Shown here piece by piece: positions 26,798 through 48,592 of a stretch of 48,592 nucleotides of DNA. The position numbers and the translations under genes are program-made. How positions within the stretch are numbered: the first letter of the stretch is position 1; each line of letters starts with the position of its first letter. Where the stretch lies: positions 1 to 48,592 of the forward strand of contig DUNK01000017.1 of NCBI GenBank assembly GCA_012839355.1, given 5' to 3'. This stretch comes from Acholeplasma sp. Lineage in GTDB: Bacteria > Bacillota_I > Bacilli_A > Acholeplasmatales > UBA5453. Below the pieces are notes generated by a model. The model saw only the letters and a list, made by a program, of their open reading frames with translations, did no database searches and was not told the DNA's origin.

Positions 26798-27170
26798 GGG
26801 GATGTTTATGGATTCGTCAAGGTAACAATGGTCTAATAAGCATGTCTTGGTTACGCAAGTAAAAACGTCGAGGTTTTCTAATAAACGGAAACAAATCAAT
26901 TTATAATTTTGGTGGACAACCAAGATTACAACTAGCAGCTTAAGATAAAGTCTGCGACCAATCTAGAAATGCTTACGGTCTAGTGAGGTAAGAGAGTAAG
27001 ATATATTTGTAGTTCTGCCGCCTTAAGGCTATAAACGAATTTTCAAGGCTCGCTTTATCGTAATGTTCCTTTTCAATACTTTAAAGTTAAAGCCCCTAAA
27101 AGGATAAACATGTAGAAATTTAGATGCATTCTTGTTTTGCACAGGGGTTCGACTCCCCTCATCTCCACCA
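26798..27170 (+). ncRNA. ssrA: tmRNA (ssrA)
   Basis: The 5' end GGGGATG pairs with CATCTCC before ACCA at the 3' end, with one wobble. The T-arm region CAGGGGTTCGACTCCCCT and the 5' block GGTTTATGGATTCGTC-like sequence mark the tRNA-like domain. The tag frame is best read from GGA at 26887: GNKSIYNFGGQPRLQLAA then TAA at 26941-26943. The C-terminal LAA is the usual degron for ClpXP/FtsH-type proteases. CCA is encoded. The element rescues stalled ribosomes with SmpB. An insertion sequence begins 7 bases after the CCA. Confidence 0.95.
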
Positions 27171-46603: not shown

Positions 46604-47161
46604 TTACATTTTTTGGTAAATAAAAACATTTTTATTACCATACTTCTTATTGGAAGTTAATTCTAAAGATTTTACATTTAAAAGGCTTGATGAGCTTGTT
46701 CTTTCAAGAACAACTCGTAGGCCTTTTTTTTGCGTTTTATTTAATGTTTCAATGATGACTAATAAATCTTCGTCACTAAAATCATAGGGTGGATCAATAA
46801 AAACTAAATCAAAGAAAATACCCTTTTCTTTATAATATTCAAGGGCTTTTAAGTAATCTAATTTAGTTATCTCTACTCTATTTAAAACATTTAAGTTTTT
46901 TGCGTTTTCTTTAATTGCTTTTACGGATAAATTATCAACATCATTAATATATGCGAAACTTGCACCTCTTGATAATGCTTCAAAGGCATACGCTCCTGAA
47001 CCTGCAAACAAATCCAAAACCACACCATCAATCTTAAAAAGCATATTGAAGACCGCCAATCTAACTTTTTGCGATGTTGGTCTAGTTTTATTACTATAAC
47101 TAATTATTTTTCTTTGATTAAATTCTCCGCCTGTTAAATAAATTATCTTTTTATCCATCAA
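46604..47161 (-). CDS. rsmD: 16S rRNA (guanine966-N2)-methyltransferase
   Basis: 185 residues. YLTGGEFNQRKI, TRPTSQKVRLAVFNML (the R-P-T-...-R-E/AFN block), VLDLFAGSGAYAFEALSRGA (SAM loop) and the catalytic VFIDPPYDF. It methylates G966 of 16S rRNA in the 30S subunit. It overlaps the Fic-fold gene by 11 bases. coaD, its frequent partner, is not seen before the ferredoxin. Confidence 0.95.
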   Translation of the reverse strand: MMDKKIIYLTGGEFNQRKIISYSNKTRPTSQKVRLAVFNMLFKIDGVVLDLFAGSGAYAFEALSRGASFAYINDVDNLSVKAIKENAKNLNVLNRVEITKLDYLKALEYYKEKGIFFDLVFIDPPYDFSDEDLLVIIETLNKTQKKGLRVVLERTSSSSLLNVKSLELTSNKKYGNKNVFIYQKM

Positions 47162-48230
47162 TAATCTTTAACATTCCTTCATTGTAATAAAGTTTTTCAA
47201 AATAGGTTTCTCTTGTTTTTATAATGCCTAATTCTTTTAAGAATCTATATCTCTTAATAATTGTCTTTCTTTGAACATCAAAGCGTTTTTCAAGTGGCTC
47301 GCTTGCTACATATATCGTTTTAAACGATTGATGTAATACTTCATGCAAGCGTCTTTTTTGGTAAATTGTATGGTCTGATTTATCTACTTTTCTCTTTTGC
47401 GAAACTTTTAATTTGTTAAAAGCTAAAATCATCTCTCTAGCATCAATAATCGCCGCTTTTAACGCTTTTAAGAACGCAACAAGGAAAATGTTAATATTGC
47501 TTTTTCTCATCGCTTCATCGCGTCTTCTATCAATTCTTCTTAAATACTTTGATAAAGGAATATAATGCTTTAGGCTCGCAAACTCGCGCAAGTATAACTG
47601 ACTAATAGTTCTTGCAATAATTTCATTACCAATTAAAAATGGTCTGTTAACTATTATTTGATAATACAAATAGGCACTTCTTACAAACGGACTTATATCC
47701 TCTCTTAACATAAATAAATCCATCTCAACCATATTCGCTTCTAAATGATCTTTTGGCGAACTAATAAAAATTGCCTGTTCAATGTTTATTCCACCAATGA
47801 ATGTAATGTTTTTTCTAAATTCACCTGGTGTATATTTTTTATGTTTAGAGTAAAGACTCTGATGTAGAGCCTTTAAATAGTAATTAGAATAACCCATTTT
47901 TTCTAGTTGTATCGGAGCCTTACTAAATATATCTTTTAATTCTAATAATTCTTGATTAAATAAATCAAACTTACTAGGTGCATGTAAATCAGCAAGTGTA
48001 TATTCAGACCCTTCTAAATTTAAAGAATCAATCATTTCTTTATCTTGAATTAAATCATAAAAGAAAAGATTTGATGGTGTAGGCAGTGGAAAAAGTTTAT
48101 GAATTTCTTCAACTAATTGATCAACTTCATAATTTGCGTCAGCTGTGATATGTAATTCATTTAAACTATATGGGCAAAAACATTCAACTTCTTTTGTTCC
48201 ATACATTGCTTTTTTATATTGGCCTAACAT
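47151..48230 (-). CDS. Fic-fold protein with His-to-Asn active-site change and C-terminal winged helix
   Basis: 359 residues from the ATG at 48230 (AGGTGG 4 bases upstream); an in-frame start 22 codons further out would translate a hydrophobic stretch within the leader and is rejected. The Fic blocks are present: inhibitory-helix motif DSLNLEGSEYTL (S-x-x-x-E-G at 69-74), TPGEFRKNITFIGG (134-147) and the motif region YYQIIVNRPFLIGNEIIARTI, where HPFxxGNGR reads NRPFLIGNEIIAR (196-208). The catalytic His is Asn and the last Gly is Glu. A winged helix fills the C-terminus (about 300-350). It lies downstream of a structured RNA and hairpin, and overlaps rsmD. Confidence 0.78.
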   Translation of the reverse strand: MLGQYKKAMYGTKEVECFCPYSLNELHITADANYEVDQLVEEIHKLFPLPTPSNLFFYDLIQDKEMIDSLNLEGSEYTLADLHAPSKFDLFNQELLELKDIFSKAPIQLEKMGYSNYYLKALHQSLYSKHKKYTPGEFRKNITFIGGINIEQAIFISSPKDHLEANMVEMDLFMLREDISPFVRSAYLYYQIIVNRPFLIGNEIIARTISQLYLREFASLKHYIPLSKYLRRIDRRRDEAMRKSNINIFLVAFLKALKAAIIDAREMILAFNKLKVSQKRKVDKSDHTIYQKRRLHEVLHQSFKTIYVASEPLEKRFDVQRKTIIKRYRFLKELGIIKTRETYFEKLYYNEGMLKIIDG

Positions 48231-48267
48231 TATACCACCTACTAATATAATATAAAAAATATACCTA

Positions 48268-48302
48268 AAAAGCAATAAAATTGTGCGTAATAGCACAATT
48301 TT
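48268..48302 (-). terminator. Terminator-like hairpin between the structured RNA and the Fic-fold gene
   Basis: On the minus strand AAAATTGTGC, 6-base loop, GCACAATTTT, then ATTGC and five T. It could end the structured RNA or act as a conditional attenuator for the gene 40 bases downstream. Confidence 0.65.
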
Positions 48303-48355
48303 ACCTTTTATTTTTGCCTTGTTATTTTGTTTACTATTTCATTTTACATAAATAG

Positions 48356-48495
48356 CCCCAGAAAGTGAGTACGATCAAAAAATTAATGGTGGTAATTTTT
48401 TGCTTTGCTTCGTGAGCTCCAACGAGTGGATATTCGAACCCGACAAAACCTCGATTTCCTTTTCTGTGCGTTGGGATCTACCAGACTTTCTGGGT
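48356..48495 (-). ncRNA. Structured RNA of unknown family
   Basis: The minus-strand transcript should begin near 48495 (ACCCAGAAAG). A perfect 10-base closing helix CCCAGAAAGT (48494-48485) with ACTTTCTGGG (48366-48357) encloses CCAACG/CGTTGG (48474-48469 with 48424-48419), a hairpin AAAAAATTA/TAATTTTTT (48377-48401), and a TTCGAAT loop. The 5' CCAGA can instead pair with TCTGG three bases later, a possible switch. There is no SRP, RNase P or T-box signature, and the shape is branched, unlike 6S RNA. It has its own promoter and a hairpin downstream. Confidence 0.65.
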
Positions 48496-48501
48496 ATATA
48501 T

Positions 48502-48530
48502 ATTATAACATAGATAATATATATACTCAA
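48502..48530 (-). promoter_or_regulatory. Promoter of the structured RNA
   Basis: On the minus strand TTGAGT (48525-48530), 17 bases, TATAAT (48502-48507), 7 bases before the predicted first A. The region also forms a 13-base perfect inverted repeat (GTATATATATTAT/ATAATATATATAC, 48494-48526). Confidence 0.75.
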
Positions 48531-48542
48531 ACTTTGCTGCCT

Positions 48543-48592
48543 TTACTTGCGTAGTAACTCTTCCGCTTTTTTGATAATTACAGCCTTATATT
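48543..48592 (-). CDS. C-terminal end of an unidentified protein (partial)
   Basis: The minus strand reads YKAVIIKKAEELLRK then a TAA stop at 48543-48545, and runs off the window edge. The sequence is protein-like but too short to assign. Confidence 0.4.
   Translation of the reverse strand, partial: YKAVIIKKAEELLRK

What the first reader, a model, noticed from the sequence alone, without database searches (positions are those of the whole stretch)
48265..48530. Unassigned structured RNA with promoter and hairpin upstream of a degenerate Fic gene
A TTGAGT-17-TATAAT promoter is followed by an RNA of about 140 bases closed by a perfect 10-base helix with at least two internal helices and a TTCGAAT loop. 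The first helix has a competing local partner (CCAGA/TCTGG), and a terminator-like hairpin stands before the gene at 48230. This is the layout of either a stand-alone small RNA or a riboswitch/attenuator for the Fic-fold gene. I can match it to no family I know.
Basis: partly seen in the sequence, partly recalled or inferred. Interest (0 to 1): 0.75.

Follow-up and report, generated by a model that had tools for sequence, protein, structure and literature searches.

The report
Divergent 6S RNA missed by annotation
The unknown structured RNA is a short, diverged copy of 6S RNA, the widespread bacterial RNA that reins in RNA polymerase; it was not recognised because the standard search model does not find 6S RNA in this group of bacteria (Acholeplasma and relatives).

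Summary
The RNA is real and is a stand-alone gene. It runs on the minus strand from about 48495 to 48356. A covariance model grown from its relatives finds one copy per genome across the order Acholeplasmatales, A. laidlawii included, with heavy compensating changes: 31 of 32 pairs change on both sides, and 0 of 500 shuffles match the score. The same model, followed outward into the class, lands on known 6S RNA genes. Of 20 distant hits, 18 coincide in place and strand with Rfam RF00013 (6S/SsrS), 11 of them above the curated cut-off; f2 genomes of the same order are hit by both models. RF00013 passes its cut-off in none of 61 relatives, so the gene goes unannotated. tmRNA, RNase P and SRP RNA lie elsewhere. 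The riboswitch/attenuator idea for the Fic gene fails: the RNA is found without Fic in most relatives, and Fic has its own promoter after a terminator. The likely mechanism is open-promoter mimicry that sequesters sigma-A RNA polymerase, with release by a short product RNA (predicted GUUGGGAUCUACCA). That is inferred, not tested here. A known kind, newly recognised in this lineage.

The parts
48502..48530 (-). Promoter of the RNA: TTGAGT, 17-base spacer, TG-extended -10 TATAAT
   Evidence: homologues keep a promoter at the same distance
48356..48495 (-). 6S (SsrS) RNA gene, about 140 nt
   Evidence: covariance models R1 and R2; distant members coincide with RF00013
48485..48494 (-). P1 closing stem, 5' strand (CCCAGAAAGU)
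   Evidence: all 10 pairs of this helix have changes on both sides in A6
48357..48366 (-). P1 closing stem, 3' strand (ACUUUCUGGG); in most relatives followed by a T-run, so P1 probably doubles as the terminator
48475..48481 (-). P1b 5' strand (GUAGAUC); together with P1 the closing arm next to the central bubble
   Evidence: the window carries its own compensating change GAAC/GUUC to GAUC/GAUC
48369..48376 (-). P1b 3' strand (GAUC-G-UAC, one bulged base)
48460..48474 (-). 5' strand of the central bubble (CCAACGCACAGAAAA)
   Evidence: position equivalent to the 5' central bubble in the RF00013 alignments
48470..48483 (+). Predicted product RNA (pRNA) GUUGGGAUCUACCA, antisense to the 5' bubble and P1b, with G at positions 4, 5 and 6
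   Evidence: inferred from the conserved CCC and the pRNA rule in PMC8414754; not tested
48454..48459 (-). P4 5' strand (GGAAAU), equivalent to GGGAgcc of 6S
48391..48396 (-). P4 3' strand (AUUACC), equivalent to the 6S CACCC
48443..48449 (-). P2 apical arm, 5' strand (GUUUUGU)
   Evidence: strongest covariation
48402..48408 (-). P2 apical arm, 3' strand (GCAAAGC)
48431..48442 (-). Conserved apical internal loop, 5' side (CGGGUUCGAAUA), equivalent to 6S GGUGUUGAAxGCC
   Evidence: alignment A6, printed
48409..48417 (-). Conserved apical internal loop, 3' side (GCUCACGAA), equivalent to 6S GGAAUCCUAAA
   Evidence: alignment A6, printed
48418..48430 (-). P3 terminal hairpin (UCCA CUCGU UGGA)
48377..48390 (-). 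3' strand of the central bubble
   Evidence: position in alignments A4 and A6
48274..48305 (-). Terminator-like hairpin between the 6S gene and the Fic-like gene
   Evidence: similar hairpins with T-runs in L013, L014 and L017
48247..48275 (-). Separate promoter of the Fic-like gene: TTGCTT, 17 bases, TATTAT (not part of the RNA)
   Evidence: sequence read; equivalents with a 17-base spacer in L013, L014 and L017
47151..48230 (-). Fic-like protein gene, a neighbour and not a target of cis-regulation

Best explanation
This is the 6S RNA (ssrS) gene of an Acholeplasmatales bacterium. It is transcribed from its own sigma-A-type promoter as an RNA of about 140 nt that folds into a rod: closing arm (P1 and P1b), central bubble, apical arm (P4, P2, P3). 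From the family's known mechanism, the rod imitates an open promoter and binds the sigma-A RNA polymerase holoenzyme, keeping it from ordinary promoters when growth stops. When nucleotides return, polymerase copies a short product RNA from the 5' side of the bubble (predicted GUUGGGAUCUACCA). That opens P1b and frees the enzyme. Shown here: gene, promoter sequence, conserved fold, single copy, homology to 6S RNA. Inferred: expression, polymerase binding, product RNA synthesis and physiological role.
For: Model R1 finds one copy per genome in 50 of 199 relatives; R2 in 113 of 395 genomes of the class. In 18 of 20 distant R2 hits RF00013 scores at the same place and strand, 11 above its gathering score, up to 72.7 bits. 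Two f2 genomes of the same order are hit full length by R2 (50.5 and 52.7 bits) and weakly by RF00013 at the same place, bridging the gap. Across 51 distinct sequences spanning the window and bona fide 6S RNAs, 90.4% of cells pair, 31 of 32 pairs change on both sides, 0 of 500 shuffles match, and sliding the pairing collapses it. Shared sequence marks: GGGA after the 5' bubble, CCCAC after the apical arm, GUGAAxGCC...GGAAUCC in the apical loop. SRP RNA, RNase P RNA and tmRNA are elsewhere in the genome, and RF00013 finds no other 6S gene there. The genome has a sigma-70 family factor. The predicted product RNA has the GG at 4/5 reported as conserved (PMC8414754).
Against: The window sequence itself is not matched by RF00013 even at E = 10, so membership rests on intermediates. 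At about 140 nt it is shorter than the 187 positions of the Rfam model. The AA at product-RNA positions 9/10 seen in lactic acid bacteria and B. subtilis is absent. There are no expression or binding data.
Confidence: 0.95

Rival explanations
1. A cis-acting riboswitch or attenuator of the downstream Fic-like gene.
For: The RNA lies upstream of the Fic-like gene on the same strand, with a hairpin in between. Same order in genera g2 and g3.
Against: The hairpin is followed by a separate Fic promoter, TTGCTT-17-TATTAT, with equivalents in L013, L014 and L017. In g4 a helicase gene lies between them. In A. laidlawii, A. granularum and other genera the RNA has other neighbours, such as an aminopeptidase-like gene, and no adjacent Fic gene. 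Most relatives have a T-run right after the closing helix.
Confidence: 0.02
2. A different, unrelated trans-acting housekeeping RNA (a new class, Ms1-like or CoRP-like) that only resembles 6S RNA.
For: Own Rfam score is nil. PMC11077062 argues that unrelated polymerase-binding RNAs exist in lineages where 6S RNA was not found.
Against: A continuous series of homologues leads from the window to sequences over the RF00013 cut-off at the same place and strand, with the same order of helices and the same conserved loop motifs.
Confidence: 0.03

Closest known systems
6S / SsrS RNA (Rfam RF00013), Firmicute type (B. subtilis 6S-1)
   Same: Rod with closing arm, central bubble and apical arm; GGGA and CCCAC flanking the bubble; GUGAA-GCC...GGAAUCC apical loop; single gene with sigma-A-type promoter; intrinsic terminator at the closing helix in most relatives
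   Different: About 140 nt instead of the 187 positions of the Rfam model; scores below Rfam reporting in most of the order; no AA at product-RNA positions 9/10
Ms1 and CoRP RNAs of actinobacteria
   Same: Abundant structured RNAs that associate with RNA polymerase, reported where 6S RNA was not found (PMC11077062)
   Different: About 300-500 nt and not recognised as 6S homologues; no sequence link to this RNA was sought
uORFC-13-1 motif of Acholeplasma (PMC8632094)
   Same: A structured RNA candidate reported from Acholeplasma
   Different: A cis element exclusively upstream of aroF; not this locus

Membership tests
6S / SsrS RNA | Rod-shaped fold: closing stem, central bubble, apical stem | tested here: met
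   Structure supported by covariation
6S / SsrS RNA | Homology to recognised 6S RNAs | tested here: met
   One covariance model joins the window (105 bits) to loci above RF00013 gathering at the same place and strand; f2 genomes are intermediates
6S / SsrS RNA | Stand-alone gene with sigma-70/A promoter, normally one or two copies | tested here: met
   Promoter; one match per genome (the second place in G000 is an overlapping contig end)
6S / SsrS RNA | pRNA template in the 5' side of the bubble with GG at pRNA positions 4/5 or 5/6 (PMC8414754) | tested here: met
   Predicted GUUGGGAUCUACCA; CCC conserved at this place across nearly all of the order's sequences aligned. The start position is inferred, so this is a weak test
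6S / SsrS RNA | Binds sigma-A/70 RNA polymerase holoenzyme and inhibits it | not testable with these tools
   Needs RNA polymerase co-purification or in vitro transcription
6S / SsrS RNA | pRNA synthesis and release | not testable with these tools
   Needs in vitro transcription or small-RNA sequencing
Rfam model RF00013 (a detection threshold, not a biological feature) | Window itself scores at least 46.4 bits | tested here: not met
   No match even at E = 10; the model also misses the A. laidlawii and A. granularum loci and has 0 of 61 relatives over cut-off
Riboswitch/attenuator of the Fic gene | Constant linkage to, and shared transcript with, the regulated gene | tested here: not met
   Linkage not constant. 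Shared transcript judged only from promoter and terminator sequences, not from RNA data
SRP RNA, RNase P RNA, tmRNA | Would have to be the only copy in the genome | tested here: not met
   Each is found elsewhere in the same genome

The most novel reading that the evidence does not exclude
Acholeplasmatales carry a compact, lineage-specific form of 6S RNA that annotation has overlooked across the whole order, and a small-genome genus of the same family (probably the phytoplasmas) has lost it. That would make the group a natural test of what the minimal 6S RNA needs and what its loss costs.
Probability: 0.5. Interest if true: 0.45.

Novelty: new member of a known kind. Interest (0 to 1): 0.35.

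Why it matters
It turns an 'unknown structured RNA' into a known global regulator and shows that 6S RNA extends through Acholeplasmatales, where the standard model passes its cut-off in none of 61 genomes searched. Annotation of A. laidlawii and relatives can be corrected with a better model. Truncated B. subtilis 6S-1 RNAs still work in vitro (PMC8876501), so this roughly 140-nt form could serve as a natural short 6S RNA for asking what the molecule needs.

Tried and rejected
Rfam at gathering and permissive thresholds on the window and its nearest homologues gave only chance hits. SRP RNA, RNase P RNA and tmRNA were rejected because each is found elsewhere. A T-arm or tRNA-like reading of GGTTCGAAT was dropped: the bases lie in the apical internal loop and vary to GTGAA in relatives. 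A GAACCC/GGGTTC pseudoknot suggested by four sequences was not supported once more sequences were aligned. The Fic riboswitch/attenuator was rejected on synteny and promoters. Weak R2 matches in one small-genome relative (G072, E 0.008) and in G006 (E 0.009) were treated as unproven. Weak antisense R2 matches at the true loci reflect the near-palindromic rod; the sense strand scores far higher. Papers on 6S RNA in Mollicutes, Tenericutes, Acholeplasma and phytoplasma gave no hit that by title or abstract concerns this locus (only PMC8632094 was opened). The two surveys most likely to mention it, Barrick 2005 and Wehner 2014, are not held, so an earlier report in their supplements cannot be excluded.

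Full report
Observation. The promoter, the 10-bp closing helix, the internal helices and the hairpin before the Fic-like gene are all in the sequence. The RNA folds better than dinucleotide shuffles, z about -3. Rfam finds nothing in it, at gathering scores or at E up to 10 beyond chance matches.

Homologues. A DNA search of relatives found a 73% identical copy in G005 in the same gene order, galU - RNA - Fic-like gene - rsmD. Looking upstream of the Fic-like gene in other genomes gave two more. A four-sequence covariance model, R1, then found one copy per genome in 50 of 199 relatives. The second place in the window's own genome is contig C5, whose first 291 bases overlap the window's end at 99% identity; it is most likely the same locus, split by assembly.

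Structure. A 23-sequence alignment supports P1, P1b (with one bulged base), P4, P2 and P3: 90.5% of cells pair, 21 of 32 pairs change on both sides, 0 of 500 shuffles reach any of the five measures, and sliding the partners by one column halves the pairing. The structure was chosen on this alignment, so the larger alignment below is the better test. The window itself carries a compensating change in P1b (GAAC/GUUC in relatives, GAUC/GAUC here).

Identity. Model R2, built from that alignment, found one match in each of 113 of 395 genomes of the class, outside the order too; only the window's own genome had two, the overlapping contig ends. I fetched 20 of the distant places. Rfam's RF00013, 6S/SsrS RNA, matched 18 of them at the same place and strand, 11 above its curated cut-off, best 72.7 bits; R2 matched all 20. 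Within the order, RF00013 gave no match over its cut-off in 61 genomes and only two weak ones, in f2 genomes. R2 hits those two at the same place with full-length matches of 50.5 and 52.7 bits. An alignment joining the window to these bona fide 6S RNAs has 90.4% of cells paired, 31 of 32 pairs with changes on both sides and a covariation score of 0.619 against 0.213 in shuffles; it was fitted to the model, which leans towards the structure. The 6S landmarks line up: GGGA after the 5' bubble, CCCAC after the apical arm, GUGAA-GCC...GGAAUCC in the apical loop. SRP RNA, RNase P RNA and tmRNA are present elsewhere in the genome, and RF00013 finds no competing 6S gene there.

Taxonomy. An exact pattern from the 5' part matched 27 contigs among 84,980 species genomes. 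The titles name Acholeplasma laidlawii, A. granularum, Peloplasma aerotolerans and many Acholeplasmataceae, Tenericutes or Bacillota MAGs, and R2 confirmed all 27 (L136 is cut off by its contig end). The order is therefore Acholeplasmatales.

Transcription unit. In most homologues a promoter ends its -10 box 5-8 bases before the RNA's first base; many have a perfect TTGACA. In most relatives the closing helix is followed by a T-run, so P1 probably doubles as the terminator. In the window the T-run is weak (GGCTATTTAT) and the hairpin at 48274-48305 may serve instead. The Fic-like gene then has its own promoter, TTGCTT-17-TATTAT at 48275-48247, with equivalents in L013, L014 and L017. In g4 a helicase gene separates RNA and Fic. 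In A. laidlawii and A. granularum the RNA lies between galU and an aminopeptidase-like gene, and elsewhere next to rsmD or downstream of the ribosomal protein L20 gene (gene names there are from my reading of the sequences). The RNA is therefore not a Fic leader.

Mechanism. 6S RNA mimics an open promoter, binds sigma-A polymerase and is released by synthesis of a short product RNA from the 5' bubble (PMC8876501, PMC8414754). Lactic acid bacteria and reference species have GG at product-RNA positions 4/5 or 5/6. The equivalent here is GUUGGGAUCUACCA, window 48470-48483 plus strand; CCC at this place is conserved in nearly all aligned sequences of the order. The genome encodes a sigma-70 family factor. 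Expression, binding, product synthesis and physiology are inferred.

Distribution. A search with laxer filters of 16 genomes of genus g20 (0.5-0.9 Mb, same family as Acholeplasma) and 8 of g15 found nothing convincing. A stricter-filter search did find one weak hit in g15 (G033, E 1e-6), so absence there is less secure.

Verdict. The RNA is a diverged, compact 6S RNA. Interest is moderate: the kind is known, but the standard model misses it across an order.

Noticed in passing
window 48302-48592 and G000:C5:1-291 (L010): The window's last 291 bases overlap the start of contig C5 at 99% identity; C5 continues into galU, so the two contigs are probably neighbours broken by strain variation. One difference changes the 6S -10 box from TATAAT to TACAAT.
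   Followed up: partly
window 47151-48230 minus: The Fic-like protein (Pfam Fic, E 1.6e-9) has RPFLIGNEIIAR where the Fic motif HPFx(D/E)GNGRxxR is expected, so the catalytic histidine is lost. A relative (L002) has LPFLIGNQEIAR, so the loss is shared and suggests a non-AMPylating role.
   Followed up: partly
genus g20, 16 genomes such as G048 and G097: No convincing 6S RNA in 16 small genomes (probably phytoplasmas), although their family-mates keep it: a likely loss. Most g15 genomes of f3 also lack a detectable copy.
   Followed up: partly
L133 and L145 (A. laidlawii, A. granularum): galU lies directly upstream of the 6S gene as in the window's family, so this linkage spans two families; TPP riboswitches lie about 3 kb downstream in the same loci.
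   Followed up: no
L107, L101, L153: In some relatives the 6S gene lies near the ribosomal protein L20 gene or an L20 leader, hinting at an older gene order for the class.
   Followed up: no
window 26798-27170 plus: tmRNA with tag peptide GNKSIYNFGGQPRLQLAA.
   Followed up: no
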